From a candidate division WOR-3 bacterium (GTDB lineage Bacteria; Hydrothermota; Tepidihabitantia; SM23-42), in assembly GCA_029858255.1 (NCBI GenBank), contig JAOUFJ010000002.1, positions 74,637 to 138,636 on the forward strand: a DNA stretch of 64,000 nt, read 5' to 3'. Below, in pieces: positions 29,442-63,100 of the stretch. A program made the translations under genes and the position numbers. The notes below the pieces were generated by a model that did no database searches, was not told where the DNA came from, and was given only the letters and a program-made list of their open reading frames with translations. The stretch's first letter is position 1. Each line of letters opens with the position of its first letter.

Positions 29442-29645
29442 ATGGAGAAAATCAATGCCGATACCCATGTCGAACAAATACTGATGAAATATCCTGCTCT
29501 GTCGAGGATATTCATCGATTTCGGTCTCCCCTGTCTGGTCTGCGGTGAACCGTTCTGGGGCACGATAGCGGAATTAGGCAGCAACCATAGTATCAGCATT
29601 GATAAATTAAATGAGGTTAAGGCAGAAATTGATGAAAAATCATAA
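29442..29645 (+). CDS. DUF1858 domain protein (hybrid-cluster-associated redox disulfide domain)
   Basis: A 67-residue protein matching the DUF1858 pattern: a Glu-rich N-terminal helix, then a CxxC (C31, C34 in LPCLVCGEPFWGT). This domain often accompanies hybrid-cluster proteins and other redox genes and may exchange electrons through its disulfide. Its end overlaps the NUDIX-PanD gene by 14 nt. Confidence 0.8.
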   Translation: MEKINADTHVEQILMKYPALSRIFIDFGLPCLVCGEPFWGTIAELGSNHSISIDKLNEVKAEIDEKS

Positions 29646-43671: not shown

Positions 43672-44892
43672 ATGTCCTACCTCGTTGACATGGATACTAT
43701 TATGTGTATACTTGGATTTAATATGTTTTTAGGAATTTATGCTGTCTTAGCATTAATAGGGCTCTATATACTCTTTCTCAGAATTGAAAAGGTCAATCAT
43801 GAGAAACGGGTTAGATCCATACCGGTCCGCATATGGGTGAACGGAAGTCGCGGAAAATCGTCCGTTACGCGATTGATTGCCGCCGGGCTCAGGGGTGGCG
43901 GCAAGAAAGTTATAGCAAAGACGACAGGCACAAGGGCCAGTTTCATCACCGACAACCGAAACGAGCAACCGGTTATGCGCCTCGGTATGCCGAATATCCG
44001 GGAACAAGTCAAGATATTCAGAAAAGCAACCGCCGAAAGACCAGATGCGATCGTGCTCGAATGCATGGCGTTGAGGCCTGATCTGCAATATTCGGAGGCA
44101 GTGCAGATCGTCAAGCCAAACGCGGTCGTGATCACCAATGTTCGTGCTGACCATCTCGATGTTATGGGACCTTCGCTCAGAGACATTGCCGGACATTTTC
44201 TCAATGCCATACCGAGCAACGCAATATTGTTTGTCGGCGATAAAAGCATATTAGAAGATCATCAAAAGATGCTACGCATGAAGGGAATAAATGTGACCTT
44301 TTCGGATGCAAACAGTGTCCCGGACACCACAATCGCCGATTTCCATTATATCGAACACAAAGCAAACGTTGCGCTGGCTCTTGACGTATGCAAAAGATTT
44401 GGAGTAGATGCGCAAGATGCACTAAAAGCCATGCTCTCTGCATCCCCTGACCCAGGTGTTCTGCGAAAACATTTACTGTCACTGAACAGCAAATCGGTCA
44501 CGCTGATCAATGCCATGGCAGCCAATGATCCCGATTCGACCCACATGATATGGCAGATGGTAGATAAGAACTACCCGGAGATAAATATCCTCGTGAATTG
44601 CCGAAATGACAGGATCGACCGCTCGTTCCAGATGGCAAAGCTTATCAAGGAAAGCATGCCAGCTGACCGCTACATACTAACCGGCAGCGGTACCGAAATT
44701 CTCGCGCGAAAACTCTACAAGACAACCGCGCGCGAAAAAATTCTCGATATCGGCGGGAGAACTCCCGATGAAGTGGTACAGGCCGTGACCAATGCGGTAT
44801 CGAATAACAGCTTTATTTTTGCGATGGGCAATACGGTGGGTTATGGTGAAGAAATGATGAACCGATTCTTACTTCGTGAAAGGAACAGATGA
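43672..44892 (+). CDS. pgsB: poly-gamma-glutamate synthase subunit PgsB/CapB
   Basis: A 406-residue membrane-anchored amide ligase of the Mur-ligase-like family that polymerises glutamate into gamma-PGA. An N-terminal membrane helix (about 12-37) is followed by the ATP loop GSRGKSS (58-64), then KTTGTRAS, VLECMALRPDLQ and NVRADHLDVMG. The length is normal for CapB/PgsB. It overlaps pgsC by 4 nt. ATG 43672 has no ribosome-binding site; an internal ATG at 43690 is possible. Confidence 0.93.
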   Translation: MSYLVDMDTIMCILGFNMFLGIYAVLALIGLYILFLRIEKVNHEKRVRSIPVRIWVNGSRGKSSVTRLIAAGLRGGGKKVIAKTTGTRASFITDNRNEQPVMRLGMPNIREQVKIFRKATAERPDAIVLECMALRPDLQYSEAVQIVKPNAVVITNVRADHLDVMGPSLRDIAGHFLNAIPSNAILFVGDKSILEDHQKMLRMKGINVTFSDANSVPDTTIADFHYIEHKANVALALDVCKRFGVDAQDALKAMLSASPDPGVLRKHLLSLNSKSVTLINAMAANDPDSTHMIWQMVDKNYPEINILVNCRNDRIDRSFQMAKLIKESMPADRYILTGSGTEILARKLYKTTAREKILDIGGRTPDEVVQAVTNAVSNNSFIFAMGNTVGYGEEMMNRFLLRERNR

Positions 44893-45341
44893 TACTAATT
44901 GAATCCGTTGGGATAGGAATGTTCTTGAGTCTCATCTTAACCGAGACCATTGGACTCGCTGCGGGTGGTATTGTCGTGCCTGGCTACATCGCTCTTGTGC
45001 TGCACCACCCGGTGCAGGTCATCGCAACTATACTCGCTGGATTGATTACCTATTTAATAATCAAATTGCTTTCTTCTTACATAATAATTTACGGCCGCAG
45101 ATTGTTGATCATATCGATCTTGATCGGCTACCTCATTGCATATCTGACGCGCATTTCACCCACAATAAACTTTAATGAATTCAGCATGGACATTCAGACG
45201 GTCGGTTTCGTGATACCCGGCTTGATCGCCTACTGGATTGCCCGGCAGGGTATTATCCCAACGCTTTCAGCCATGATCATCGTTTCGAGTCTGGTGCGGC
45301 TGATCATTATCATCGTTCATAACGGGATGGTATTACCATGA
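44889..45341 (+). CDS. pgsC: poly-gamma-glutamate biosynthesis membrane protein PgsC/CapC
   Basis: A 150-residue, highly hydrophobic protein with four to five membrane helices, matching PgsC/CapC, the integral membrane partner of PgsB in gamma-PGA synthesis and transfer across the inner membrane. Typical segments are TIGLAAGGIVVPGYIAL and GFVIPGLIAYWIARQG. It overlaps both neighbours by 4 nt (ATGA), implying stoichiometric translation. Confidence 0.92.
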   Translation: MILIESVGIGMFLSLILTETIGLAAGGIVVPGYIALVLHHPVQVIATILAGLITYLIIKLLSSYIIIYGRRLLIISILIGYLIAYLTRISPTINFNEFSMDIQTVGFVIPGLIAYWIARQGIIPTLSAMIIVSSLVRLIIIIVHNGMVLP

Positions 45342-46414
45342 AGAAACGCGAAGGCAAGATATCGATTTTATCACTCCTCATTGTGACGACGATCACCATT
45401 CTCTTGATGATCGTTGAGTTGAATTCAAAAGCAAAAGTCCAGACAGAATACCACAGCGAGAAATTGAGTGCAGCCGAGAAGGCAAACCGGGCGTTCGCTG
45501 TCATTAAAGATACCGTAGTGCGCATGGGGATCCCTATCGACCGGATCAACGACCCGAACGAAACCGGCATCATCGGACTCCAGTATTCACCTATCACCAC
45601 GGAACGTGGCGATCTCGATGCTAAATTGACATCGACCAACCCTAACCTGGCCGCCCTGGTCGTCAAGCTGCTAAAAGAAGCCGGCGCCAGGAAGGATGAT
45701 CTGGTTGGTGTTTCACTTTCGGGCTCGCTGCCGGCACTTAACATCAGTGTGGTCAGCGCGACCGAGGCGCTGGGGCTCAAACCGGTCATCATCACGTCGG
45801 TGAGCGCGTCGATGTGGGGTGCCAACTACCCTGAACTCACATATCTGGACATGGAAAACATACTCGTCGAGCGTGGTATTCTTAAATCGAGAACTATTGC
45901 TGCATCACTGGGCGGTGAGGACGATGTCGGCCGCGGCTTGAGTCCGGCAGGACGGGAGATCGTTGAACAGGCTGCGATGAGGAATACCGTCCCAATGATA
46001 GAAGCCAGAAATCTGGATGAAGTCATTGAGAAAAAGATGGAAAAATTCAACTCGCTCGGCAACATAAAGATCTTCATAAATGTCGGAGAGAGAGCGACGG
46101 CTCTCGCCGGTTCAGCAACAGATGGTGGGTTGATCAGACCGTATTCGATACGGGCAGGTAATGGATTGATCGCACTCTTCTCGCAATCAGGTATTCCTGT
46201 CATCAACCTAAATGATATAAACACCCTGGCACAGAACAACGGTCTCGGGGTGTCGCCGATTCCGTTACCCAAACCAGGAGAAGGACGTCTGTACTATGAA
46301 TACAAATACTCGGTTGCCATCGCCATAGTGGCGACCCTCATTCTGGCAGTCATTTTGTTTATCGTGCTGCGTTTTGATGTCGATTATTATCTAAAAAGGA
46401 GAAGAAATGGTTAA
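45338..46414 (+). CDS. pgsW: poly-gamma-glutamate system protein PgsW
   Basis: A 358-residue protein of the PgsW family, found beside pgsB/pgsC in organisms lacking the usual PgsA/CapA. It has one N-terminal and one C-terminal membrane helix with a large domain between them that contains GVSLSGSLPALNI and SLGGEDDVGRGLSP. Its biochemical role is unknown. No pgsA, pgsE or capD-like gene is present in the window. It overlaps the next gene by 8 nt. Confidence 0.88.
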   Translation: MKKREGKISILSLLIVTTITILLMIVELNSKAKVQTEYHSEKLSAAEKANRAFAVIKDTVVRMGIPIDRINDPNETGIIGLQYSPITTERGDLDAKLTSTNPNLAALVVKLLKEAGARKDDLVGVSLSGSLPALNISVVSATEALGLKPVIITSVSASMWGANYPELTYLDMENILVERGILKSRTIAASLGGEDDVGRGLSPAGREIVEQAAMRNTVPMIEARNLDEVIEKKMEKFNSLGNIKIFINVGERATALAGSATDGGLIRPYSIRAGNGLIALFSQSGIPVINLNDINTLAQNNGLGVSPIPLPKPGEGRLYYEYKYSVAIAIVATLILAVILFIVLRFDVDYYLKRRRNG

Positions 46415-47237
46415 TCTTGTGATGGCTCTCTGCCTTTTTTCTCAATTGCAGAAGATAGAACCTTACAAGAAATGGGAAATTGAGATAGTCACTAAGAAAA
46501 CTGATGAGTACCTGCTGCTGGTTAAGAACCAGCCGCTTTCGTTCTCGGTCGAGGGGCCGACGTACCTGAGGGTATACACCAGGATCGTCTGGCCCAAGGG
46601 CAGCCTGGGCAGCGAGATCTATAAGGTGATACTACAGAAAAATGAAATCGACGAAGAAATTATGACCCTCGAATCAGACGAATCGAGCGTGTCAAAGGAC
46701 AAGAAAGGAAGAACTCTGAGCAAGTGGCGGTCTTTCTACATTGAAGTACCAGAGGGTCTGAACCATTATAAATTGACCCACTGGTCATCACCCCAGGATA
46801 CGATACTGGTCAAATTCGCCTACGAGTCGCCGAAGCGCTGGGAAGAAATTACCGCCGCTGAATACAACGCGATCATCGAGGCGATCGAAGAAGAAAGAAT
46901 AGTGAAGTACTACGAGTTAACAAATAATGGTACTGTCACGGTGCGTTTAAACGGACCACAACGCCTGCGTGTAATAGCCAGACTCAACTATGATGAAAAA
47001 ATGATCGGCGATCAGAATTATACACTCACTGTCGAAGACAATGGCAAGAGCGAGAGATTTCCATTGAAGTGCTACAAGTCACAAATGATCACATACAAGG
47101 ACAGAAAGAACATCGTGCCGTCGAATGCCCGCAGTTTTCACGTCAACTTGAGTGCAGGAACGCATCTGCTCCGCTTCAGCTTGGCCGGCACCATCGCCGA
47201 AAGCGCCGCTTTGAGGTTCCTGGTCGAGGAAAAATGA
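46407..47237 (+). CDS. hypothetical exported protein with internal duplication
   Basis: A 276-residue protein I cannot assign to a family. The short hydrophobic start suggests export. The body consists of two similar beta-rich halves: about 25-150 (SFSVEGPTYLRVYTR ... FYIEVPEGLNHYKLTHWS) and about 165-276 (TVRLNGPQRLRVIAR ... FHVNLSAGTHLLRFSL). Its start overlaps pgsW and its end overlaps the barrel gene, so it belongs to the gamma-PGA operon and may act in the periplasm between inner and outer membrane parts. Confidence 0.75.
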   Translation: MVNLVMALCLFSQLQKIEPYKKWEIEIVTKKTDEYLLLVKNQPLSFSVEGPTYLRVYTRIVWPKGSLGSEIYKVILQKNEIDEEIMTLESDESSVSKDKKGRTLSKWRSFYIEVPEGLNHYKLTHWSSPQDTILVKFAYESPKRWEEITAAEYNAIIEAIEEERIVKYYELTNNGTVTVRLNGPQRLRVIARLNYDEKMIGDQNYTLTVEDNGKSERFPLKCYKSQMITYKDRKNIVPSNARSFHVNLSAGTHLLRFSLAGTIAESAALRFLVEEK

Positions 47238-48226
47238 TCTTATTCATACTGTTCACACTCTGGGATTATTCATACAATTTCGACGTCGATGCGACCTACG
47301 ACAACAACATCTATGCATATTCTCAGGAATACATTGACGAGTTCCTGGATGGTATACGTCCGTATCGATTCCCGTTTGACACTTATGATGACCTGATCAC
47401 TTCCTTCGACTTCGCTTTACTGGTCAGAAACAAATTCTTTGGCAAACGTACCACCACGTTCAGCGTCAATTTGAACTCCGACAACTACCTGCTTAACAGA
47501 CAGAAGAATTTTCAAAGATACACGTTCGGACTCAGGCAATCACTGGGTAGATACGCGGCCAAGGTATCATACCAGGTCATACCCGGTTATCTGATACGAT
47601 ACTACCGTGACCCCTACGGCGGAAGCACGGATTACATCGGATGTGAGGCTACATACCATACCGCGAGCGGGAAATTGTCTTTCATGACCGCCCATGACAT
47701 CACTCTGACTGCAGGTTACGGCCATAGATGGGATGATTACATCACAGAATTCAATCGTTACGATGCCAGCGGTCACATTCTATCGTTTGGCATAGAAAAG
47801 AAAATACACAGACATTTGGATTTTGCCTTTGGCTACGAATTCAGAAATTCATATACGGATTCGGCCGATGCAACAACATCAAACATTGACCTGACACCAG
47901 ACGGTTCATTCTACCAACATTCGCTCAGCGGGGACTTTTCTGCTCAAATGGTCGTCGCCTTACCCACAACAATGAATCTGTCATACGATTATGGTCTCAG
48001 AAATTATGTTACTTCAACTAGTGAGGACTCGCTTCATTTCGGACGCCGTGATCACAGGCACCGGGTGATGTTGACAACCTATTCGCGCCTGATGACCGGT
48101 CTCCAGTTGAAGCTTACGTTGATGCGCCAGTGGAGGAACGCAACGTCCGAAATCCTCTCGGATATCGATAGGATCAAAGACTATACCAGATATAGAGTTG
48201 GCGCAGGTTTTGAATTCTATTATTAG
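47234..48226 (+). CDS. putative outer-membrane beta-barrel protein of the gamma-PGA operon
   Basis: A 330-residue protein with a short signal-like N-terminus, then many alternating polar/aromatic strands and a C-terminal aromatic end (AGFEFYY), as expected for an outer-membrane beta-barrel. No specific family is recognised. ATG 47234 overlaps the previous stop (ATGA); the open frame further upstream is inside the neighbour. Its place behind pgsBCW suggests export or anchoring of poly-gamma-glutamate through the outer membrane, which is inference. Confidence 0.7.
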   Translation: MILFILFTLWDYSYNFDVDATYDNNIYAYSQEYIDEFLDGIRPYRFPFDTYDDLITSFDFALLVRNKFFGKRTTTFSVNLNSDNYLLNRQKNFQRYTFGLRQSLGRYAAKVSYQVIPGYLIRYYRDPYGGSTDYIGCEATYHTASGKLSFMTAHDITLTAGYGHRWDDYITEFNRYDASGHILSFGIEKKIHRHLDFAFGYEFRNSYTDSADATTSNIDLTPDGSFYQHSLSGDFSAQMVVALPTTMNLSYDYGLRNYVTSTSEDSLHFGRRDHRHRVMLTTYSRLMTGLQLKLTLMRQWRNATSEILSDIDRIKDYTRYRVGAGFEFYY

Positions 48227-48234
48227 GGGGTTAC

Positions 48235-49188
48235 GTGAAATATCTGAAGTTCCTTTTCTTAGTTTTTTTGGTTCTTTCATTTTGCGGCCGTCCCGAGGTT
48301 GAACCGGAAACAATCTTCACTATCATAGGTGAATGTCCATTGCCTGGATACGCAGAGAAAGTCGAACTTGTCGGCGACCTTGCCTACGTGGCGGATGGAC
48401 AGGGCGGTCTGCAGATCGTCGATATAAGCAATCCTGAATCCACAAGTGTTATTGGTAATTATGTACCATACGGTTGGGATGCCAACGCCGTTGCGGTGAG
48501 AGATACCTTCGCCTATGTTGCTATGTCACCGTTGGGCGGCGGACTCCTTGTGCTCAGTATTGCCGACCCAACCTCACCGTATTCTTTAGTACAGGATGGG
48601 TCATTTTCTGCTTACGATGTCGTAGCTCCAGCTGCCGATACGGCGTATGTATACATCGCTGCCGGGTATTGGTTCTATGTTTGGGACATCACCTTTCAAT
48701 CGTATACCAGAAGACTGAAGACCTACGGCGACGTAATAGCTCTGCAAATGGTTGACACACTTGCTTACCTGAGTTGCGAACAAATGGGAATGTGGATATT
48801 CAATCTAGCTAGCCCCGACACACTACCTGTCGGCTGGATAGACACTCCAGCAAACGCTCGAAGTCTCTTTATCAATGGGAATCAAGCCTACGTTGCTGAC
48901 GGCCGGGCAGGGTTGATAATCATTGACATAGCCGACCCCGCCCATCCGGTAATCGTTGGCGAATTCGACACACGTGACTATGCTAATGAAGTCTGTGTCT
49001 CTGGAGACAAGGCATACGTTGCCGACGGTGATGGAGGTCTTTTCGTCATCGATGTCAGCAACCCGGAAGATCCGGTTCTTTACGGAAGTCTCGACGTTTC
49101 ATATGCAAACGGTATTGCCGTTCGAAATGACACAATCTTTGTTGCCGACCGCGATTTGGGACTGTTGATAATCGTCGAGGAGGAATAA
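48235..49188 (+). CDS. LVIVD-repeat beta-propeller surface protein
   Basis: A 317-residue exported protein built of LVIVD repeats (LAYVADGQGGLQIVDISNP, QAYVADGRAGLIIIDIADP, KAYVADGDGGLFVIDVSNP), which form a beta-propeller. The N-terminus is a signal peptide with a Cys at residue 17 (LSFCGRP); Phe before Cys is not a standard lipobox, so lipidation is uncertain. The start is GTG 48235 after AGGGGG. Its stop overlaps the C25-like gene (TAATG), tying the surface proteins to the gamma-PGA genes. Confidence 0.85.
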   Translation: MKYLKFLFLVFLVLSFCGRPEVEPETIFTIIGECPLPGYAEKVELVGDLAYVADGQGGLQIVDISNPESTSVIGNYVPYGWDANAVAVRDTFAYVAMSPLGGGLLVLSIADPTSPYSLVQDGSFSAYDVVAPAADTAYVYIAAGYWFYVWDITFQSYTRRLKTYGDVIALQMVDTLAYLSCEQMGMWIFNLASPDTLPVGWIDTPANARSLFINGNQAYVADGRAGLIIIDIADPAHPVIVGEFDTRDYANEVCVSGDKAYVADGDGGLFVIDVSNPEDPVLYGSLDVSYANGIAVRNDTIFVADRDLGLLIIVEEE

Positions 49189-52100
49189 TGACGGCATTAT
49201 TGCTGGCTCTTTGTGCTGGATACGCTTACAACCAAGTTGTCATGACAGAATCATCGGCAACAAAACTACAGTTCCGAGTAAGTTTTTCTGAAAACAGCAA
49301 ACTTGAGCAGTTGGCAATCACCCGATTTGTCATCGCAGAACACGAGCCATTCATTGACTACCGGATTACCACTATCGATTCGATTGTGAACGAAAGCCCT
49401 TCAGGTTTACACAAGTACAGCCCAGTTGAGATCGCCGAACCAATACACACAGGTAATGCTAAACTGTACCCAATCATCATTTATCCGTCATACTTAAATA
49501 ACACCCACAAGGTCTATTGCGAATCCGTCGAAATAACAGTGGCTATCGACCCGAGCTCCAAAGAGCTTGAACTACCACCATCTTTGGTGAAAGCATACGC
49601 CGGGCTCATTCTTAATCTTCGCGAAACAGGTAATATGCCGCCAGCAGGATATCTTATCATTGCCCCAGACGGATTTCTCGACGAGTTGTCGCCGCTTGTA
49701 CGCTGGAAGGAGCAGAAAGGCTGGCGTGTCGAGGTCCGTCCACTGTCCCTAACAGGAAGCAGTGCAACCGAAATCAGGAATTACATCGCTAATGCATACA
49801 ACACATGGTCGCCACGTCCTGAATATGTGTTATTAGTCGGCGACGTAGGCTATATTCCCGCAGCATCTTCGAATCCTTCATTGACTGACCATCCCTACAC
49901 GTTAATAACTGGCGATGATTTCTTTTCAGAACTTTTAGTCGGACGTCTACCGGCTGCAACTGAACTCGAGTTGAACACTATGATCGCGAAAATCATTGGC
50001 TATGAAACCAATCCTCCGACATCGAATGCGGCATGGTTCAAACGGGCACTGATGGTCGGCGCGAACCAACCTGGATTCATGACCACGCCGCTCCCGACCA
50101 AACGCTGGGTAAGGGATAGACTGCTCGATTACGGTTTCAATGCAGTAGACACTGTATTTTATCCCATGCCCGCTTCAGGTATCACCAATGCGATAAATCA
50201 AGGTGTGATTTTCGTTAATTACCGCTCAGGCGAAGGTGATGTCGATGGCTGGCCCTGGCCCAACTTCAGGAACGACGATGTATACGCATTGAACAACGGC
50301 GGGATGTTACCTATTGTTACCAGTATCACCTGTTACACGGGCTCTTTCGGCTACAGCACATGTTTTGGCGAAGCATGGCTGAGGGCTGGTAATCCCGTGA
50401 CTCCCAAAGGCGCAGTGGGATTCTTCGGATCGGCTTCGCCTTCGACCCATAGTCGCTGGAATAACTGCCTTGATTACGGTGTATATTGGGCATTTGCAAA
50501 AGATAAGATAGCAGAGCTGGGGCCTGCGTTGTACCGAGGCAAAATGGAAGTTTATACTAATTTCCCGGACGATACGACGATCCTTTCGGGCAGCTCGTTT
50601 TATTTCCACTCATTCAATCTGCTGGGCGATCCATCAATGAGTGTCTGGACTGACATCCCGGACACTTTCCAGGTTGCTCACACAACTTCAATACCGGTGG
50701 GCGCGAATTTCCTCTCGATCACGGTGATGAATTCTGGGGCGCAACCGGTTGAGGACGCGATGGTCAGTTTACACAAGTCGAATGAAATAAAAGAAATAGC
50801 CTTCACCGATGCGGCAGGTTACGTCGATTTCAATTTTTCAACAAGTACCCAGGATACGCTTTTCGTGACCGTAACAAAAACAAACTATAAACCCTATAGA
50901 GGATATTGCACGGTCAATAATTCATCGGTGTATGTAGACTATTTCAGCCACACCATCAGCGATCCGGGCGGGAATAACAATGGCCAGGTGAATCCGGGAG
51001 AACCAATAAGTCTCAATGTAACACTGAAGAACTACGGCACTTCAACTACGGCAACAGGTGTTTCGGCGCGGTTGTCCACAGAGGATGTGAACATCACAAT
51101 GACCGATTCTGTCAAATCATATCCTAATATCAATCCGGGAGCGACTGCAACCGCTTCCCCATTCACATTCAACGTTGCGTCAGGAATTCGTAACGATCAT
51201 GTCCTGAAATTCAACCTCGATATTTCATCGGCACAGGGTAATTGGTCAGGAAGCGTGTGGATCACAGTCAAGTCACCTAATGTGATCTATAAATGGAATC
51301 AAGTGATGGACGGCAACGGCGTACTCGAACCCGGAGAGACATGCGATTTCATGTTGTGCATAGAAAATAATGGCGGGCTCGAGGCAAGCAATGTATCAGG
51401 GATACTCAGATCAGCGAATAGCGGTTTGATCGTGAGCGATTCCATGGGATTCTTCGGGAATATCGCGGTCGGTGATACTGCCACGAACAGCTCGAACTAT
51501 TTCACTCTGGCGGCAAATTCGAACCTCACACCGGGCACCATTGTACGTTTCGCACTTATTGTCACAGGGAACAACGGCTTCGTGGACACAACCGGATTCA
51601 GATTGACCATTGGCATCGTTGACTCAACCGAACCGCTCGGCCCTGATGACTATGGATATTTCGCCTATGACAACACGGACACGGATTATCCTGATGCGCC
51701 AACCTATAGCTGGGTGGAGATCGATCCTGCTCATGGAGGTCCAGGTGATACGATAAGCCTCGCGGCCGACGAAACGAAAACCGTACAATTGCCATTCAGC
51801 TTCAAATTTTACGGAAACTGGTATAATCGTGTATCAATAAGTTCCGACGGATATATCGCAATGGATTCGACAATCGTGGCCGATATGTACAACTGGCACA
51901 TACCGGCTGCAGGAGGACCGCCGCTGCTCATTGCGCCATTCTGGGATGACCTGGATCCAACCGCAACGGATTCAAGCGGCAATGTTTGCTACTGGCATGA
52001 TGCAGCCGGTCATCGTTTTGTCGTTGAGCATTCACGGATCCAGCATATTCACGACCCCACCACTCCAACACCGTCTGAACTACAAACGTTCGAAGTCATA

Positions 52101-52643
52101 CTCTATGACCCTCAATACTACTCCACAGAGACGGGTGATGGAGAGATACTTTTCCAATACTTGAATATCACAAATGATGATGGCTGGCATAATTATGCTA
52201 CAGTAGGCATTGAGGATTTTGATCATACGACCGGGATAGAGTACACCTATGCCAACGTCTACCCTTCTGCTGCAGCACCATTGACGAACGGTCGGGCGAT
52301 CAAATTCACAACCAACCCTCCAGATTCATTCACCGGCATATCCGAATTTAGCACCAGAACAAACCATGGCAATATGCTCAGTATATCACCGAATCCGTCC
52401 TCCAAACTCGTTGATATCAGATACCAGATAACTGATAACAGACAGGCAATCTTAAGAGTCTATGATGTGGCAGGACGCGTTGTCCAGGATCTTTCAAGTC
52501 AGCTATCTGTAATCGGTCATCCTTCATCAGTCAAGTGGAACCGTACCGATACATGGAGCAGAAGAGTGCCTGCAGGCATCTATTTCATTGTCTTACAGGA
52601 TCATAGGTACAACATATCCAGAAAAGTAATCCTCGTAGATTAA
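49188..52643 (+). CDS. gingipain-like (C25) protein lacking the catalytic His, with sorting module
   Basis: A 1151-residue secreted protein. After a short signal peptide and pro-region, a C25 domain spans about residues 155-490. The nucleophile position C382 (ITCYTG) is kept, but the dyad His 33 residues before it is E349 (SGEGD). Two Ig-like Ca-loop domains (NNNGQVNPGE, DGNGVLEPGE), a beta-sandwich domain about 815-1040 and a C-terminal FlgD-Ig/type IX-like module (GIYFIVL...KVILVD) follow. It overlaps the LVIVD gene. Proteolysis is uncertain. Confidence 0.85.
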   Translation: MTALLLALCAGYAYNQVVMTESSATKLQFRVSFSENSKLEQLAITRFVIAEHEPFIDYRITTIDSIVNESPSGLHKYSPVEIAEPIHTGNAKLYPIIIYPSYLNNTHKVYCESVEITVAIDPSSKELELPPSLVKAYAGLILNLRETGNMPPAGYLIIAPDGFLDELSPLVRWKEQKGWRVEVRPLSLTGSSATEIRNYIANAYNTWSPRPEYVLLVGDVGYIPAASSNPSLTDHPYTLITGDDFFSELLVGRLPAATELELNTMIAKIIGYETNPPTSNAAWFKRALMVGANQPGFMTTPLPTKRWVRDRLLDYGFNAVDTVFYPMPASGITNAINQGVIFVNYRSGEGDVDGWPWPNFRNDDVYALNNGGMLPIVTSITCYTGSFGYSTCFGEAWLRAGNPVTPKGAVGFFGSASPSTHSRWNNCLDYGVYWAFAKDKIAELGPALYRGKMEVYTNFPDDTTILSGSSFYFHSFNLLGDPSMSVWTDIPDTFQVAHTTSIPVGANFLSITVMNSGAQPVEDAMVSLHKSNEIKEIAFTDAAGYVDFNFSTSTQDTLFVTVTKTNYKPYRGYCTVNNSSVYVDYFSHTISDPGGNNNGQVNPGEPISLNVTLKNYGTSTTATGVSARLSTEDVNITMTDSVKSYPNINPGATATASPFTFNVASGIRNDHVLKFNLDISSAQGNWSGSVWITVKSPNVIYKWNQVMDGNGVLEPGETCDFMLCIENNGGLEASNVSGILRSANSGLIVSDSMGFFGNIAVGDTATNSSNYFTLAANSNLTPGTIVRFALIVTGNNGFVDTTGFRLTIGIVDSTEPLGPDDYGYFAYDNTDTDYPDAPTYSWVEIDPAHGGPGDTISLAADETKTVQLPFSFKFYGNWYNRVSISSDGYIAMDSTIVADMYNWHIPAAGGPPLLIAPFWDDLDPTATDSSGNVCYWHDAAGHRFVVEHSRIQHIHDPTTPTPSELQTFEVILYDPQYYSTETGDGEILFQYLNITNDDGWHNYATVGIEDFDHTTGIEYTYANVYPSAAAPLTNGRAIKFTTNPPDSFTGISEFSTRTNHGNMLSISPNPSSKLVDIRYQITDNRQAILRVYDVAGRVVQDLSSQLSVIGHPSSVKWNRTDTWSRRVPAGIYFIVLQDHRYNISRKVILVD

Positions 52644-54031: not shown

Positions 54032-57022
54032 GTGGCTACGTGTATTAGAAAATACGCCGTACTGCTGGTATTCTTAGCACTATCTGCTTCCTTTATGTTC
54101 GCGCAGCAAACTGGCGCGCGCTATCTAATCATCACACACGACAGCTACTACAGTGCCCTACAACCGCTGGCAACGTGGAAAACGCAAAAGGGCATGAAGG
54201 CGAGAATAGTCCCGCTCTCCGAGACAGGCGCTGATTCGACCGACATAAAAAACTACATCGTGAACGCATACATTACCTGGCAAATCAGACCAGAGTACAT
54301 ACTCATTGTAGGTAACAAATATCAAGTGCCATTCCCACGGTTCGTTCACGCGGGGGGTCTTGCTTCGTACAGTGATAACTATTATGCAAACGTCGAAGGA
54401 GATTTTCATAATGAGCTGTACCACGGCCGTCTATGGGTTTCCGACACCATACAAGCCAAGACGGTCGTGGCCAAGATCCTTGGGTATGAGAGGAATCCCG
54501 ATCTGTCGTCCGACTCTTTATGGTTCAGAAGGGGTGCAACGATCGTCAATGAATGGGAGCAAGGTCAACCGTCTTCGGCTGCCTTGTACTGGGCAGACGC
54601 GCGTTTCGCTCACCAGCAGATGTTCGATGCGAATTTCGCACACATCGATTCTTTCTCCTATATACTTGGCGACGACAGCCTGGATGTACTCAATGCCATA
54701 AACGAAGGACGGACATACATTCTATACCGAGGGATCGGCGGCGGTGACTGGCTGTGGCCATTCGCCGGTATATTCTCTTGGCAGATGAACAATGGTTACA
54801 GAATGCCCGTTGTCCTTTCAGCAACCTGCGCAACGATCGAAGGAATCGGCCGGGACTGGACCTTGGCCGGAACACAATCACAGCCAAGGGGAATAATCGG
54901 ATTCTTTGGCACAACCACTTCACTATTCGAGGCTGCGGAAATGCGGAGTGCATTGTGCCGTGCCACAACCGAATGCCTGTTCAGTGATACCGGATCACTC
55001 GGTGCATCAGCAGAAGCCGGACGGCTTGAATATTACGCGCAGTTCAATGACCTTATCGAATATCACAGCTGGATGCTTCTTGGTGATCCGGAAATGTCGA
55101 TGTGGACAACCACACCGAGAAATATCCTCGTTGGACATAACATGTATTTCCATACCGGGATCTGCACGACGACCGTTTATGTCCAGAGCGGCTCGGCTCC
55201 GGTCCAGGGTGCGCTCGTCTGTGCGATGGCGAAGTTAGACAGTTCATTCTATCACTACGGTTACACGGACTATCTCGGCGGCATACAGTTTATCGACACA
55301 CTCAATATTCCAGGTGATTCGGTCTTTATTACGGTGACCGGACGAAATCTAAAACCATACCATAATGGCCGCCCTGTATTCTTCTTGAATGGACCATATG
55401 TGAGCCTGTACTCGTTCCGTCTTCTCGATTCTTTGGGTGGTAACGGAGACGGTATAGCCAATCCCGGTGAGGATATTGAGATACCCTTCTGCATAAAGAA
55501 CTGGGGTAATGCGACAGCAATCGGTGTTTCCGCAATAATCGAGAAAACTGCACCCAGCGCATCTTGCACGCTGTACGATACTATTAAATATTTCGGTAAC
55601 ATCGCACCATATGAATCTGTGTATATATACCCCGATGGCTACAACGTAGTGATCGATGCAGATTGCCCCGACCTACAAGGAATAGACCTGCGTATGCGCA
55701 TCAGCGATGCAGGGAAAACCACGTGGCTGTCGGATCTCGGGTTCGTCGTCCATTCACCAGTAATATTATATCACGATTATTACTTCGACCAGCACGTCAA
55801 ATACATAAACTCTGGCGCTACGAGTCAATTATTCGTCGAGCTGCTGAACACAGGTTCATACGTGGCTTCAAATCCCGTTGGCAGAATATCATGCAGCGAT
55901 TCCCTCGTGACGATCATCGACACGGTCGTTAATTTTACCACGATACTTCCCGACAGTATCGGTTCCAATACATCAGACCCTTTTATCATCAGTACTGCGG
56001 CTAATTGCCCGACCGGTTATTCAACGACAATCACACTGAACGTTGCCGTAGGCGTTTACACGGTGGACCATGATTTCACTATCCATGTAGGACAAAAAGA
56101 TTATCTTATCTGGGACCCGGACATGAACCACTCAAGCGGCCCGTCGATCGATGGATTACTCGCTTCACTTGGTTTCAGCGGTGAATATGCCACGGCGTTT
56201 CCATACGGACTTCTCTCGCTCTACAAATCACTCTTTGTCTGTACAGGTGTCTATCCAGAAAACTACCTGATCATCGATACCAGTCAAAGTGGCAATGAGA
56301 TCGAAGACTATATCGAGCAGGCAAGTGGTAATGTTTATCTTGAGGGTGGTGATGTCTGGTACAATCCGCTCGTCAGCCACGGTTATGATTTCGGCCCACT
56401 CTTCGGCATCGACCCGGTATACAATTCGATCGGCATGTTCACCGGCGTTATCGGCTGCACCGGCACCTTCACCCAGAACATGGCATTCGGTTATCAGGGC
56501 GAAGCGACCATGATCGACTATATCGATTCGATTGGCGGTTCACAACTGCTCTTCAAAAAAACTGGCAGCAACTACGGCTGCGGCGTCGCGGCAGACAACC
56601 GCACCGTCGGGCTCTCTTTTGAACTGAGCGGGCTGGTCGACACTGTTGCGCCATCGACCAAGGCCGAACTGATCGCCGCGATCATGGAATATTTCGGCGT
56701 CCCCCCTACCGGTGTTGTTGAAGAACAAGATTTCAGCCGCCACTCGACACCGATGCTGCTTGTCAATCCTAACCCTTCGCGCCACGGCTTCAATATCAAC
56801 CTGCAGGGATTACCAGCGGAGAAAATCACGCTCAAGGTATATGATGTGTCCGGTCGCTGCATCCGTACGCTGATCGACAACGCCATGCCCATTGACCCAC
56901 AGCAAGCATTTTTGTGGAAAGGGCTCGACGACAGAGCCCGGAAAGTGCCGGCCGGCGTCTACTTCGTACGGCTGAGTGCTCCCGAATACGAAACGGCACA
57001 AAAGATTGTATTGATTGATTAA
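54032..57022 (+). CDS. gingipain-like (C25) protein, paralogue 2, with uncertain start
   Basis: A protein of about 996 residues. N-terminal signal peptide (KYAVLLVFLALSASFMFAQ), then a C25-type domain with GARYLIITHD and WKTQKGMKA. The Cys is present (SATCATIE, codon 54827-54829); the His position is Ile in YRGIGGG. Ig-like Ca-loop domains, a domain containing KDYLIWDPDMNHSSGP and a C-terminal sorting module (GVYFVRL ... KIVLID) follow. GTG 54032 lies inside the GGGAGGTGG ribosome-binding site, so ACG 54038 or ATT 54044 may be the real start. Confidence 0.82.
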   Translation: MATCIRKYAVLLVFLALSASFMFAQQTGARYLIITHDSYYSALQPLATWKTQKGMKARIVPLSETGADSTDIKNYIVNAYITWQIRPEYILIVGNKYQVPFPRFVHAGGLASYSDNYYANVEGDFHNELYHGRLWVSDTIQAKTVVAKILGYERNPDLSSDSLWFRRGATIVNEWEQGQPSSAALYWADARFAHQQMFDANFAHIDSFSYILGDDSLDVLNAINEGRTYILYRGIGGGDWLWPFAGIFSWQMNNGYRMPVVLSATCATIEGIGRDWTLAGTQSQPRGIIGFFGTTTSLFEAAEMRSALCRATTECLFSDTGSLGASAEAGRLEYYAQFNDLIEYHSWMLLGDPEMSMWTTTPRNILVGHNMYFHTGICTTTVYVQSGSAPVQGALVCAMAKLDSSFYHYGYTDYLGGIQFIDTLNIPGDSVFITVTGRNLKPYHNGRPVFFLNGPYVSLYSFRLLDSLGGNGDGIANPGEDIEIPFCIKNWGNATAIGVSAIIEKTAPSASCTLYDTIKYFGNIAPYESVYIYPDGYNVVIDADCPDLQGIDLRMRISDAGKTTWLSDLGFVVHSPVILYHDYYFDQHVKYINSGATSQLFVELLNTGSYVASNPVGRISCSDSLVTIIDTVVNFTTILPDSIGSNTSDPFIISTAANCPTGYSTTITLNVAVGVYTVDHDFTIHVGQKDYLIWDPDMNHSSGPSIDGLLASLGFSGEYATAFPYGLLSLYKSLFVCTGVYPENYLIIDTSQSGNEIEDYIEQASGNVYLEGGDVWYNPLVSHGYDFGPLFGIDPVYNSIGMFTGVIGCTGTFTQNMAFGYQGEATMIDYIDSIGGSQLLFKKTGSNYGCGVAADNRTVGLSFELSGLVDTVAPSTKAELIAAIMEYFGVPPTGVVEEQDFSRHSTPMLLVNPNPSRHGFNINLQGLPAEKITLKVYDVSGRCIRTLIDNAMPIDPQQAFLWKGLDDRARKVPAGVYFVRLSAPEYETAQKIVLID
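56603..56667 (+). repeat. 65-bp identical segment shared with 59633-59697
   Basis: This segment of paralogue 2 is base-for-base identical to 59633-59697 in paralogue 3, inside a wider region (about 56330-56700 and 59360-59740) of high identity. The N-terminal parts of the two genes are clearly diverged, so this patch may have been exchanged by gene conversion. Confidence 0.8.
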
Positions 57023-57061
57023 GGAATTTGTAGATAATAATAGGAGTATTTGAGGTACACC

Positions 57062-60055
57062 ATGCTGGATGCTAAGCAGCACACTATAGTATCCTTGTTT
57101 TTCCTCTTGTTAATTCTATTCATAAACGTATGCTATGGTCAGGGTACTGGAGCACGTTATCTTATAATAACACACGACGACTACTATGACGCGCTCGTAC
57201 CGCTTGCTGAGTGGAAAACACAAAAGGGACTCAAGGCCAAAATCGTGAGAACATCAGAGACAGGAAGCGATTCTGCTCAGATCAGATCCTATGTGGCAAA
57301 TGCATATTATTCATGGGAAATAAAACCGGAATATTTACTCCTCGTTGGCAACAAATACCAGATCCCGTTTCCACGAATCACACTCGCGGTCTATGTATAC
57401 AGCGATAATTACTACACCAATATCCTGGGAGATTTCCGTAACGATATCATTCCCGGCCGGTTCTGGGTGTATGACACCATGGATGTGAAGACGATTGTGG
57501 CGAAGGTGCTGGGATACGAAAAAACGCCGTATTTAGAAGACCCCCTGTGGTTCCGAAAGGGGACTACAATAGTCAACGAAGATATGGGAGGGATACCTGG
57601 CGACTCGGTCTACTGGGCTGACGCTCACTATGCACACGCCCTAATGAACAATGCAGGATTTGTTCACATCGATTCGTTCGCGCGTAGCTTCGGTAACGGC
57701 AGCGCCGACGTTATCAATGCAATCAATAGCGGAAGATCGTATATTCTATACAGAGGTGAAGGTGTAACTGTTTGGACCTGGCCTTTTAATAACATCGAGC
57801 CTGAAAATATGTCCAATGGTTTTGAATTACCGGTCATCCTATCAGCAACATGTACAACAATCGAGGGCATTGGACAGCGTTGGCTCAACGCAGGTACGCC
57901 TCAGGAACCAAAAGGAACCGTCGGTTTTTATGGCACATCCACATCACTATATCTGGCAGCAGAAATGCGAAGCGCGCTCGCACAAGGAACACTGCATAGC
58001 ATATTTTGTGATAGCCTGACAACCCTGGGCAGGGCTGCTGAGGCTGGACGGTTGAACTACTATGCGCTGTTCGGAAATCAGCTCGAGTATCATAGTTGGA
58101 CCTGCCTCGGTGACCCGGATATGAATTTATGGACTGCAACGCCTCGCCAAATAGAGGTGACACACGACGACCAATTCTTCGCAGGCATCTGCACGGTAAG
58201 CGTACACGTCGAGTATTGCTCTACACCTGTCGAATCAGCATTGGTCTGTGCGATGGCAGTCAATGATTCGTCCTTCTACAAATGGGGACGAACAGATGAT
58301 AACGGAAATATCAATCTTATCGATACAGTACCTGTTCCAGGCGACACCATTGTTATAACAGTAACCGGCAGAAATCTTTTGAGCTACAGTGGCCAGGCTA
58401 CCGTGTTTCACACGGGAAGTCCTTATGTTCTTCTTCACTCATTCAGCATAGAAGATTCGATCGGAGGAAATAACGATTCGATCATCGACCCCGGTGAGGA
58501 TATCGAGATCCCGGTCTGGTTGAGAAATTGGGGTGATGACACGGCCCGCAGCGTTATGGCAGTCTTACGCAAAACAGCCCCAGACCCATTTTTCTCTTTG
58601 GAAGATACTGTCAAGAACTTCGGTGATATTGCATTCATGGATTCTGCATTTTCAACCTTCGACGGATACAATATCATTGTCGCAGCCGATTGTCCTGACC
58701 TACACCAGATTTCTCTGGAACTTGCTGTCTCCGACGTTACTACCGCGGTCTGGAATTCATACTTGAGTACTACAGTGTACGCCCCAATGCTCATCCTTCA
58801 TGATTTCTACTTTCCCCCACACTCAATTGCTACGATACCAGGAAGTACAGATACGCTGGTAATTGAGCTGCAGAATCTGGGAAGCACCTGTGCTGACAGT
58901 GTTGCCGGACGCATACACAGCCTTGATACTCTTTTAACAGTAATCGATTCAGTATCCTCATTCGGTACGATCGAACCAGACAGCGGAGTCGGCTCAAATC
59001 TTTCAGATCCCTTTGTGATTGTCACTGACCCACAGACCCCGACGTGGCATCTGGTCGAATTGACTCTCGAAATCACCTCTGGCGTACAGCAGGATACGTT
59101 CAGTCTTATGATATATGTTGGAAAAAAGGACTATCTGGTATGGGATCCGGATCCGAATCACTCAAGCGGACCGTTAATACATGAAATCCTTGATTCGCTC
59201 GGATTTCTCGGTGAGTACAGTCCCGTTTTTCCCCGCTCCATTCTGTCACTGTACAAATCACTGTTCATTTGCACCGGGGTTTATCCGCTAACCTATACAA
59301 TACTGGATACAAGCCAGGCTGCATTGGACATCGCTGACTATCTTTCGTCAACCACTGGTAACGCTTATCTTGAGGGTGGGGATGTCTGGTACAGTCCGCT
59401 GGTCAGCCACGGGTATGATTTCGGTCCGCTCTTCGGCATCCTCGCGATATACAATTCGATGGGCACGTTCACCGGCGTCACCGGATGCACTGGAACCTTC
59501 ACCCAGAACATGGCGTTCAGTTATGGAGGCGAAGCGACCATGATCGACTATATCGATTCGACCGGGGGTTCGCAGCTGCTCTTCAAAAAAGTGAACAGCA
59601 ACTACGGCTGCGGCGTCGCGGCAAACAACCGTACCGTCGGGCTCTCTTTTGAACTGAGCGGGCTGGTCGACACTGTTGCGCCATCGACCAAGGCCGACCT
59701 CATTACCGCCATAATGAATTACTTCGGCGTCCCTCCTACCGGCGTAGCCGAAGAGCAGAATTTTATCAGCCGCCACTCGACACCAACATTGTTCATAAAT
59801 CCTAACCCATCGCGGTACGGTCTTAACATCAATTTGCAGGGGCTGACCGCCGAAAAGATCACGCTCAAGATCTACGACGTGTCCGGCCGTTGTGTCTGTA
59901 CGCTGGTCGACAATACCGTGCTCGAGGATGCGCAGCAAGCCTTTTTCTGGAAAGGGCTCGACGACAGAGCCCGGAAAGTACCCGCCGGCATCTATTTCGT
60001 ACGGCTGCAAACAGCAGACATTAATAACGCCCTAAAAGCCATAATTCTCCGCTAA
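57062..60055 (+). CDS. gingipain-like (C25) protein, paralogue 3
   Basis: A 997-residue secreted protein closely related to the preceding gene. Signal peptide (IVSLFFLLLILFINVCYG), C25-type domain with GARYLIITHDDYY and the Cys in SATCTTIE (codon 57851-57853); the His position is Glu in YRGEGVTVW. Ca-loop Ig domains (GNNDSIIDPGED), the KDYLVWDPDPNHSSGP domain and a C-terminal module (GIYFVRL ... KAIILR) follow. ATG 57062 is preferred (GAGGT 5 nt upstream) over TTG 57050. It appears to be a tandem duplicate. Confidence 0.85.
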   Translation: MLDAKQHTIVSLFFLLLILFINVCYGQGTGARYLIITHDDYYDALVPLAEWKTQKGLKAKIVRTSETGSDSAQIRSYVANAYYSWEIKPEYLLLVGNKYQIPFPRITLAVYVYSDNYYTNILGDFRNDIIPGRFWVYDTMDVKTIVAKVLGYEKTPYLEDPLWFRKGTTIVNEDMGGIPGDSVYWADAHYAHALMNNAGFVHIDSFARSFGNGSADVINAINSGRSYILYRGEGVTVWTWPFNNIEPENMSNGFELPVILSATCTTIEGIGQRWLNAGTPQEPKGTVGFYGTSTSLYLAAEMRSALAQGTLHSIFCDSLTTLGRAAEAGRLNYYALFGNQLEYHSWTCLGDPDMNLWTATPRQIEVTHDDQFFAGICTVSVHVEYCSTPVESALVCAMAVNDSSFYKWGRTDDNGNINLIDTVPVPGDTIVITVTGRNLLSYSGQATVFHTGSPYVLLHSFSIEDSIGGNNDSIIDPGEDIEIPVWLRNWGDDTARSVMAVLRKTAPDPFFSLEDTVKNFGDIAFMDSAFSTFDGYNIIVAADCPDLHQISLELAVSDVTTAVWNSYLSTTVYAPMLILHDFYFPPHSIATIPGSTDTLVIELQNLGSTCADSVAGRIHSLDTLLTVIDSVSSFGTIEPDSGVGSNLSDPFVIVTDPQTPTWHLVELTLEITSGVQQDTFSLMIYVGKKDYLVWDPDPNHSSGPLIHEILDSLGFLGEYSPVFPRSILSLYKSLFICTGVYPLTYTILDTSQAALDIADYLSSTTGNAYLEGGDVWYSPLVSHGYDFGPLFGILAIYNSMGTFTGVTGCTGTFTQNMAFSYGGEATMIDYIDSTGGSQLLFKKVNSNYGCGVAANNRTVGLSFELSGLVDTVAPSTKADLITAIMNYFGVPPTGVAEEQNFISRHSTPTLFINPNPSRYGLNINLQGLTAEKITLKIYDVSGRCVCTLVDNTVLEDAQQAFFWKGLDDRARKVPAGIYFVRLQTADINNALKAIILR
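59633..59697 (+). repeat. 65-bp identical segment shared with 56603-56667
   Basis: Second copy of the identical patch, in paralogue 3. Both copies encode the same peptide around TVGLSFELSGLVDTVAPS. Confidence 0.8.
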
Positions 60056-60157: not shown

Positions 60158-63100
60158 ATGAAGAAGTTCATTTTTTGTATTTTTATACTGATGCTGGGTG
60201 CCCAAGCACAGGAAATCGGGGCGAAATACCTCATTATCACCCACGATAATTTCTACAACGATATCCAACCCCTTGCCCAGTGGAAACACAAAAAGGGTAT
60301 GAGAACAAAGGTTGTCAAATTCTCAGAGATCGGCACGACCTCGACACAGATAAAGAGTTACATCACGTACGGTTTCAACAACTGGCAGATACGACCGGAA
60401 TTCGTTCTGCTCGTCGGCTCCCCGGATCTAATACCGTGGGGACAGACATATCCATATACATACTCAGATCACCCCTACATGAACATGAACACCGATATCT
60501 ATAACGAAATACTCCTCGGCAGATTGACCGTGCATAATACTACCGAGGCTCAGACCGTTGTGAACAAAATACTACTATACGAACGCACACCCTACATGGG
60601 TGACACAGCATGGATGCGCAACGCGTGTCTTATCGTTGCGGAAGATGGCCTTACGTATCCTCCAGTGCCAGGTACTGACGACTACATTTACTGGGGCGAC
60701 AGCCGGCATGCTTACAACCTGATGCTGGCGAACGGATACAATAGAATGGACACGTTATCCACCTTGCTCGGTGATAATTACAACGATGTTATCCAATCAG
60801 TGAACAACGGCGTGGGCTTCGTGCAGTTCCGGGGCCAGGGCGTTGGCAACTGGTGGGGACCATTCGGTGTCAACCCTGATAATACTGCAAATGGTAGCAT
60901 GCTGCCGATCGTCCTTTCTATAACATGTTCTACCATCGGCACCGGCTCAACACCGGCAACAGCGGAGCGCTGGCTCCTGACCGGAACGCCAACGACTCCA
61001 CGCGGTGCATCCGGCTATTTTGCCACGACGACGGTCAGAAGCCACGTCGCTCAAATAAGAAGCGCAGTCGCGAGAGGTTTTTTCACCGCGATATTTACCA
61101 ATGGACAGAGAACGTTTGGCGAAGCTTGCGAAGGCGGAAGATTGAACCTGTACAACCTCTACAGTGATACGCAGGACTACCAGGGGTTCGCGACGCTCGG
61201 TGATCCGGAAATGAATATCTGGACGGCAACGCCCAGGTCAATCGATGTAGCACATGTTCCTTCATTGGCTGCTGAGGATGAAACTCTATTGGTGACCGTC
61301 ACCCTGAGCAACGGCGGACCGATCGATTCGGCACTGGTATGCGCAGTCCTCGATACGACAGTATACTCGTACGGCATTACAGACAACAACGGTCAGATAG
61401 TCTTGCAGCTGCCGACCATGCATCCGGGACAAATGGACATAACCGTGACCGGACGGAATTTGATACCGCATGAAGGGACGATCGAAATCGTCGGCGATAA
61501 TGCATATCTCCAGTATCAGAGTCATATTCTCAACGATTCGCTCGGCAATAATAATGGAATACCGGAAAATGGAGAAACCATACTGTTAACAGCGACGATA
61601 GCGAACATCGGTCTGATGGCAGCGACCGGTGTCAGTGCAACATTACGGTCGGACGATGAATTCGTTTCGATCATCGACAGCGTTTCCTACTATGGTGACA
61701 TACAACCGCAGGATTCGGCCAGCAACATCAGTCCGTATGCAATCGCCATATCGAACATCTGCCCTGATGGTCACATCGCGGTTCTCCGACTCCTGATGAC
61801 AGATTCGGGAAGCAATGAATGGATAAGCAACTTCTCTATAATCATCACGAATACCGCATCAGGCACCTGGGTTGGCCCAGACGAATACGGCTACTATATC
61901 TACGATGATACTGATACCCTGACCGGTTATGCTCCGACATTTGACTGGTATGACGGCACAATGGCTATCGTGCCTGAGATAAGCGATGAGGATGCCGATA
62001 CGGTGACATATTCCCTACCATTCACCTTTCCGTTCTATGGCTTGAGCTATAATGCTGTCGGTATGTGTTCCAATGGCTTTCTCGAAATGGGAGTATCGAC
62101 CCACCGCTTTGGTGTTAACACACAGATACCCGCGGCCGGTGGTCCGAGAAGACTGCTCGCTGCTTTCTGGGACGACTTAGATCCCACGGTCGATTCTGGC
62201 TCAGGTGATGTGTACTATGCTTACGATACGACCAATCATCGTTACATAGTAGAATTCCGTAGTATCGGACACTGGGGTACTGTTCCCCAGACCCAGCGAG
62301 AGACATTCCAGGTGCAACTACTAGATCCGCAGTACTACACTACACCGACCGGTGACGGAGAAATCCTCTTTCTCTATGATACGGTAATGAATGCAAGTTC
62401 GAATACGGTTGGCATCGAAGATCATACCGAAACGCGCGGCCTCCAGTACGTCTACAACAATAGCTACCACCCGAACGCGGCACCCTTGCAGAACGGGCGT
62501 GCATTACTGATAACCACGAAGACCCCGGCAGGCATATGGCTACATACTGTAGACTTTTCGTTCGAAGATTCGACCGGCGGCAATAATAACGGCATCATCG
62601 ACCCCGGCGAAACAATACAAATCTACTTACAACTAATGAACAGCGGCAACGCCGCGGCAAACAATGTTACGACAATTCTCAGAACTGGTGACCCCGACGC
62701 CAGCATTACGGACAGCACCGCAGAGTTCGGATTGATCTCTCAGGGATCGGTCGCGGCCAACTACGGCGACCCATATGTCGTCGAGATCAGCACCACGCCA
62801 TCAGATACGACGATCGGTTTTGTCCTTTATATTAGCTGCAACAGCGGTGCTTATCACAAATCTGATTACTTCACGTTCTACTTGTACGGTTCCCCAGGAG
62901 TTGAAGAACAGAAAACCGGCATGCTCGGTGTTGTTAGTCTCAACATTTGTCCCAATCCCTTCAAACTCTCGACCGACATTAATTATACCATACCTTACGC
63001 AGGATACGCGACCCACGAGAATGCTACTTTGAAAATATATGATGTGACCGGGAGAATGGTAAAAGACTTCTCTGGATTGCTGTCGGCTAATGCATACCAG

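What the first reader, a model, noticed from the sequence alone, without database searches (positions are those of the whole stretch)
43672..49188. Gamma-PGA synthesis genes fused in one operon with a putative outer-membrane barrel
pgsB, pgsC, pgsW, a duplicated-domain exported protein and a beta-barrel protein overlap in sequence, followed at 8 nt by an LVIVD protein that overlaps a C25-like gene. PGA systems are best known in Gram-positives, which need no outer-membrane exit. This layout may be a dedicated envelope-spanning export and anchoring system. No pgsA/capA, capD or pgdS-like gene is visible.
Basis: partly seen in the sequence, partly recalled or inferred. Interest (0 to 1): 0.75.

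Follow-up and report, generated by a model that had tools for sequence, protein, structure and literature searches.

The report
Polyglutamate synthase with outer-membrane exit barrel
A little-known two-membrane bacterium carries genes for making the polymer poly-gamma-glutamate in one operon with two uncharacterised proteins, a periplasmic beta-sandwich protein and an outer-membrane barrel, which occur together with the synthase genes in dozens of genomes and are sometimes fused, so they probably form the polymer's route out of the cell.

Summary
PgsB, PgsC and PgsW pass their NCBIfam equivalog/subfamily cut-offs. The 276- and 330-residue products (here S276 and B330) match no Pfam, NCBIfam or PDB family. 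All five genes overlap by 4-8 nt.

It is passed in 147 genomes of the phylum (WOR-3/Stahlbacteria): 66 of 70 PgsW genomes carry S276 and 66 of 70 carry B330 (Fisher 1e-31 and 2e-29), usually adjacent. In 99 genomes outside the phylum, 7 of 10 PgsW genomes have S276 and none of the other 89 do (8e-9). Four families fuse S276 and B330 into one protein.

B330 is very probably an outer-membrane barrel: 14 predicted strands, amphipathicity like the genome's own Omp85 barrels, and relatives matching barrel Pfam families. The AlphaFold model is poor (pLDDT 52). S276 is a tandem duplicate of one beta-sandwich domain. The inferred lumen is net basic, as expected for a polyanion.

Most likely mechanism: PgsBC(W) makes gamma-PGA at the inner membrane; S276 and B330 conduct it through periplasm and outer membrane. 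Polymer and transport are inferred. LVIVD/C25 genes are frequent but optional neighbours. "Anchoring" is unsupported.

The parts
43672..44892 (+). pgsB, poly-gamma-glutamate synthase (Mur-ligase-like amide ligase) with N-terminal membrane helix; P-loop NGSRGKSSVTR
   Evidence: TIGR04012 402.6 bits over cut-off 222.7, PF08245; the true start may lie slightly downstream (homologues align from residue 10-20)
44889..45341 (+). pgsC, polytopic inner-membrane partner of PgsB
   Evidence: TIGR04011 125 bits over cut-off 96.5; PF14102
45338..46414 (+). pgsW, 'poly-gamma-glutamate system protein': N- and C-terminal membrane helices with a ~290-residue extracytoplasmic domain; not homologous to CapA/PgsA
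   Evidence: TIGR04332 303.5 bits over cut-off 100; alignment A5; hhalign with CapA-like proteins, probability 0.1
46407..47237 (+). S276: exported protein of two homologous beta-sandwich domains (about 22-148 and 149-276), unnamed family
   Evidence: no family match; halves align by hhalign, 99.7%, E 5e-27; weak fold matches to beta-sandwich/CBM-like domains; phylum-wide co-occurrence
47234..48226 (+). B330: predicted outer-membrane beta-barrel, about 14 strands, unnamed family
   Evidence: AlphaFold strands (pLDDT 52); amphipathic-strand z 2.5, family mean 2.0, like Omp85 controls; barrel families hit by relatives; net-basic inferred lumen
48235..49188 (+). LVIVD-repeat beta-propeller protein, frequent but optional neighbour
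   Evidence: PF08309 134.7 bits; synteny
49188..52643 (+). C25-family (gingipain-like fold) secreted protein with T9SS-type sorting domain; catalytic His position not conserved, Cys retained; optional neighbour
   Evidence: PF01364 215 bits, TIGR04183 31.1 bits over cut-off 23; alignment to RgpB structures; dyad check

Best explanation
The five genes pgsB-pgsC-pgsW-S276-B330 encode an envelope-spanning poly-gamma-glutamate synthesis and export system of diderm bacteria. PgsB with PgsC ligates glutamate into a gamma-linked chain at the inner membrane and passes it across (inferred from family membership). PgsW, anchored in the inner membrane by two helices, acts on or guides the chain on the periplasmic side and takes the place that CapA/PgsA has in Gram-positives (inferred). 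S276, a tandem beta-sandwich protein, docks on or continues the barrel on its periplasmic side (inferred from strict pairing and from natural S276-B330 fusions). B330 is the outer-membrane channel whose net-basic lumen lets the polyanion out (barrel nature supported, transport inferred). LVIVD and C25-like proteins are surface accessories in a subset of lineages.
For: PgsB/PgsC/PgsW over curated cut-offs. Within the phylum, PgsW and S276 occur together in 66 genomes, alone in 4 and 4, neither in 73; PgsW/B330 66, 4, 6, 71; S276/B330 69, 1, 3, 74; outside it, PgsW/S276 7, 3, 0, 89. S276 follows PgsW directly in 49 and a fused S276-B330 in 8 of 72 PgsW loci inspected, mostly with 4-8 nt overlaps; some exceptions are contig ends or gaps. 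Fusions in families f20, f22, f23, f27 were found with profiles that contained no fused sequence. In two loci pgsB has moved behind the fusion gene yet stays in the cluster, so linkage is not mere inherited order. The conserved block ends after the barrel in several lineages. Barrel evidence. Basic lumen: inward positions 0.21 basic vs 0.13 acidic; R122, R256, R271, R301 over 90% conserved. Three Omp85 proteins in the genome, so an outer membrane exists.
Against: No PGA has been shown in this phylum. The AlphaFold models are low confidence (pLDDT 52 and 53, shallow alignments) and Foldseek gives no match to a known export barrel; top hits are generic barrels with TM about 0.3 or less. Three of ten PgsBCW genomes outside the phylum lack both proteins, and Cetobacterium has pgsBCW without either downstream, so they are not required for PGA in every diderm. 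In family f17 the pair lies apart from pgsB and pgsW. The lumen-charge argument rests on strands from a weak model.
Confidence: 0.62

Rival explanations
1. PGA is made but kept in the periplasm or on the inner face of the outer membrane, as an osmolyte or a tether between membranes. B330 is then an anchor or receptor to which S276 and the polymer bind, not a conduit.
For: Strict S276-B330 pairing and fusion show physical coupling to the outer membrane but not transport; family members are basic, and f23 fusions carry a Lys/Arg-rich linker, which would also suit polymer binding.
Against: About 14 strands with inward-facing basic residues is large for a pure anchor. Secreted surface proteins are frequent neighbours.
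Confidence: 0.18
2. The operon makes a different gamma-glutamyl product, for example short glutamyl tails added to envelope proteins or lipids, exported or displayed through the same barrel.
For: CapB/PgsB homologues in a diderm need not make PGA: capBCA of Francisella has not been tied to a PGA capsule (PMC4688374). C25-like T9SS cargo and LVIVD proteins are frequent neighbours.
Against: PgsB, PgsC and PgsW score far above equivalog/subfamily cut-offs; the LVIVD/C25 part is missing from several lineages.
Confidence: 0.12
3. S276 and B330 are unrelated envelope genes that merely share a conserved neighbourhood with pgsBCW.
For: Most loci come from one phylum; f17 genomes have the pair away from pgsB and pgsW.
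Against: Phyletic co-occurrence including other phyla, translational coupling, gene fusions and rearranged clusters.
Confidence: 0.05

Closest known systems
Gram-positive PgsBCA(E)/CapBCA(E) gamma-PGA synthase (Bacillus)
   Same: PgsB and PgsC are members of the same curated families
   Different: No CapA/PgsA in the operon, PgsW instead; two additional envelope proteins including an outer-membrane barrel
Fusobacterial pgsBCW operon (Cetobacterium somerae NZ_CP143320; Fusobacterium nucleatum is the documented Gram-negative producer)
   Same: pgsB-pgsC-pgsW in the same order
   Different: Neighbours are ggt, DUF6305, a TRAP permease and a desuccinylase; no S276 or B330 after pgsW
Cloacimonadota PGA operon (PMC13082233)
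   Same: Diderm candidate phylum with capB/capC and suggestive PGA staining
   Different: Described as capB-capC-capA in the Gram-positive layout; no outer-membrane component found in the text searched
Synthase-dependent exopolysaccharide export (Alg, Pel, Pga, Bcs)
   Same: Inner-membrane synthase, periplasmic module and outer-membrane barrel in one operon; in Pel a periplasmic ring (PelC) sits on a charged barrel (PelB) (PMC12141448)
   Different: Polymer is a polyamide made by a Mur-ligase relative; no TPR scaffold found; barrel not homologous at a significant level (only two relatives hit the PelB barrel family, best E 0.009)

Membership tests
PgsB/PgsC gamma-PGA synthase | PgsB and PgsC over curated equivalog cut-offs | tested here: met
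   402.6 vs 222.7 bits; 125 vs 96.5 bits
PgsBCA (Gram-positive layout) | pgsA/capA in the operon | tested here: not met
   None in the operon; listed PF09587 matches of the genome are on contig C7; PgsW unrelated to CapA
PgsB/PgsC gamma-PGA synthase | Produces gamma-linked polyglutamate | not testable with these tools
   Needs chemistry
PgsW (TIGR04332) poly-gamma-glutamate system | PgsW over cut-off and next to PgsB/PgsC | tested here: met
   303.5 vs 100 bits; PgsB and PgsW co-occur in 70 phylum genomes, PgsB alone in 1, PgsW alone in 0
Synthase-dependent exopolymer secretion (Alg/Pel/Pga/Bcs-like) | Outer-membrane beta-barrel encoded with the synthase | tested here: met
   By sequence tests only; AlphaFold pLDDT 52
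Synthase-dependent exopolymer secretion (Alg/Pel/Pga/Bcs-like) | Periplasmic TPR scaffold (AlgK, PgaA, BcsC, PelB) | tested here: not met
   S276 is a tandem beta-sandwich with no TPR match
Synthase-dependent exopolymer secretion (Alg/Pel/Pga/Bcs-like) | Processive glycosyltransferase synthase | tested here: not met
   Polymerase is PgsB, a Mur-ligase-like amide ligase
Gingipain-type C25 protease / PorU sortase (downstream gene) | His/Cys catalytic dyad | tested here: not met
   Cys382 invariant in 37 orthologues, the gingipain His position is not His in any

The most novel reading that the evidence does not exclude
S276 and B330 are the founding members of the first dedicated outer-membrane export machinery for a polyamide biopolymer (gamma-PGA): a PgsBCW synthase coupled to a beta-sandwich adaptor and a basic 14-strand barrel, spread across several diderm phyla and unrelated to the known polysaccharide export barrels.
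Probability: 0.5. Interest if true: 0.78.

Novelty: new variant of a known kind. Interest (0 to 1): 0.64.

Why it matters
How a two-membrane bacterium gets poly-gamma-glutamate across its outer membrane appears to be undescribed (no such component turned up in the papers searched). This operon names two candidate proteins, gives their phyletic pattern and their natural fusions, and makes the question testable by reconstitution. It would also imply PGA matrices in several uncultivated phyla and would offer a route for secreting PGA from Gram-negative production hosts.

Tried and rejected
PDB sequence searches found no significant relatives of PgsC, PgsW, S276 or B330. PgsW as a disguised CapA: rejected (hhalign probability 0.1). 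A supposed separation of pgsW and S276 by 47 kb in one genome (G086/L002) was set aside because a run of N sits at the break. The C25 gene as an active protease or sortase that anchors PGA: not supported, the catalytic His position is lost. Search for S276 in plasmids: none; a viral-contig search could not be built from the alignment. Weak B330-profile matches in G195 and G244 (E 2e-7, 3e-6) were treated as generic barrel similarity.

Full report
What is there. The window lies in a 2.72-Mb genome (96.6% complete) of candidate phylum WOR-3/Stahlbacteria; the named relatives fetched by the 330-residue protein are all WOR-3 or Candidatus Stahlbacteria MAGs. The five genes run head to tail with 4-, 4-, 8- and 4-nt overlaps, followed at 8 nt by an LVIVD propeller gene that overlaps a C25-family gene by 1 nt. 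PgsB, PgsC and PgsW are over their curated NCBIfam cut-offs. The 276-residue protein (S276) and the 330-residue protein (B330) match nothing significant in Pfam or NCBIfam and have no relatives in the PDB by sequence.

Do the two proteins belong to the PGA genes? Genome searches of all 147 held genomes of the phylum and of 99 genomes outside it gave the following. Phylum: PgsW 70 genomes, S276 70, B330 72, PgsB 71; PgsW and S276 together 66, PgsW and B330 together 66, S276 and B330 together 69 (Fisher p 1e-31, 2e-29 and 5e-37; genomes are related, so these p-values overstate independence). Outside the phylum: PgsW 10, S276 7, all seven with PgsW, p = 8e-9. Several of the exceptions are contig ends (for example G041, G091, G083, G038, G039). 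In 72 PgsW loci inspected, the next recognised gene is S276 in 49 and an S276-B330 fusion in 8; 43 of the S276 loci continue into a separate B330, with short overlaps as the commonest spacing.

Fusions and rearrangements. In families f20, f22, f23 and f27 one ORF of 535-654 residues contains both S276 domains followed by the barrel. Profiles built without any fused sequence find both halves in these ORFs (S276 profile E 6e-22 to 3e-11; B330 profile down to 4e-41). In two other-phylum genomes a separate S276 is followed by a barrel that carries one extra S276-like domain at its N-terminus (L128, L129). In L044 and L059 pgsB has moved behind the fusion gene. These facts argue for a physical and functional unit, since the association survives changes of order and of gene boundaries.

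Nature of the parts. S276: the two halves align to each other with 99.7% probability (E 5e-27), each with the motif G-P-x-x-L-[RK]-V; predicted all-beta, with a signal-like hydrophobic N-terminus. B330: about 14 strands in the model (low confidence). Independent of the model, the number of amphipathic beta segments exceeds shuffles by z = 2.5 in the window protein and by a mean of 2.0 across 53 relatives, comparable with two Omp85 proteins of the same genome (about 2.0-3.0), while PgsB, PgsW and the LVIVD propeller score below zero. Of 38 relatives, 7 hit OMP_b-brl and others hit SlipAM (1e-8), MtrB_PioB, OmpG, Porin_4 and the PelB barrel. Positions inferred to face the lumen carry 0.21 basic and 0.13 acidic residues per site, against 0.065 and 0.057 outside. 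Three Omp85 proteins show that the organism has an outer membrane.

Mechanism. Shown: gene content, coupling, co-inheritance, fusion, barrel-like sequence of B330, duplicated sandwich of S276. Inferred from families: PgsBC ligates glutamate and moves the chain over the inner membrane. Inferred from architecture: PgsW works on the periplasmic side, S276 bridges to or gates the barrel, and B330 releases the polyanion. I put this at 0.62. Rivals are periplasmic retention with B330 as an anchor, a different gamma-glutamyl product, and simple neighbourhood.

LVIVD and C25. They follow B330 in most WOR-3 classes and occur in the cluster of three other-phylum genomes (L119, L128, L129), but the fused-type loci, G153 and G197 lack them. 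All C25-like neighbours keep the cysteine (Cys382, 37 of 37) but none has histidine where gingipain R has its catalytic one. They are therefore accessory, and a protease or anchoring role is not supported.

Comparison with known systems. Gram-positive operons use CapA/PgsA; here PgsW stands in the operon and is not homologous to CapA. A fusobacterial pgsBCW operon (Cetobacterium somerae) has ggt, a TRAP permease and a desuccinylase beside it, and no S276/B330 after pgsW, so pgsBCW is shared among diderms while the other components differ. The Cloacimonadota PGA operon is reported as capB-capC-capA (PMC13082233). Fusobacterium nucleatum is cited as a Gram-negative PGA producer in PMC3815933, and Francisella capBCA has not been tied to a PGA capsule (PMC4688374). 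In function the layout resembles Alg/Pel/Pga/Bcs secretion (PMC12141448 for PelBC), but it lacks their glycosyltransferase and TPR scaffold, so it is not a member of that class. No paper found describes an outer-membrane component for PGA; the library holds open-access papers only.

Verdict. The export interpretation is the best-supported one, anchoring is not supported, and chemistry is missing. It is a new variant of a known kind: a PGA system with a dedicated diderm envelope cassette made of two unnamed families.

Noticed in passing
49188-52643, 54032-57022, 57050-60055, 60158-63220: Four C25-family genes, most with T9SS-like C-terminal domains, lie close together; in these and the aligned relatives the gingipain catalytic His position is not His, while the Cys (382) and an Arg (346) of the first are invariant among its 37 aligned orthologues, suggesting pseudo-proteases or an altered active site.
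   Followed up: partly
L149 (NZ_CP143320.1, Cetobacterium somerae): Fusobacterial pgsBCW sits next to gamma-glutamyltransferase, DUF6305, a TRAP permease subunit and a succinylglutamate desuccinylase, a second diderm layout for PGA genes.
   Followed up: no
L070, L081, L082, L131, L132, L133 (family f17): pgsB, pgsW and the S276-B330 pair are at different places in these genomes, yet the pair stays together.
   Followed up: partly
L047:5554-7518, L048:5524-7485: S276-B330 fusions of family f23 have a long Lys/Arg-rich linker directly before the barrel, a plausible polyanion-binding stretch.
   Followed up: no
45338-46414: PgsW has strongly conserved motifs (GS[FL]PALN, WGAN, GG-DD-GRGLSPEGR) that look enzymatic rather than structural; its activity is unknown.
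   Followed up: no
L002 (CP070795.1): The 'chromosome' record has a run of N at the start of S276 and a separated, truncated pgsW about 47 kb away: probable mis-scaffolding.
   Followed up: yes
29611-30492: A single ORF joins a Nudix domain (with Zn ribbon) to an aspartate decarboxylase domain, an unusual combination.
   Followed up: no
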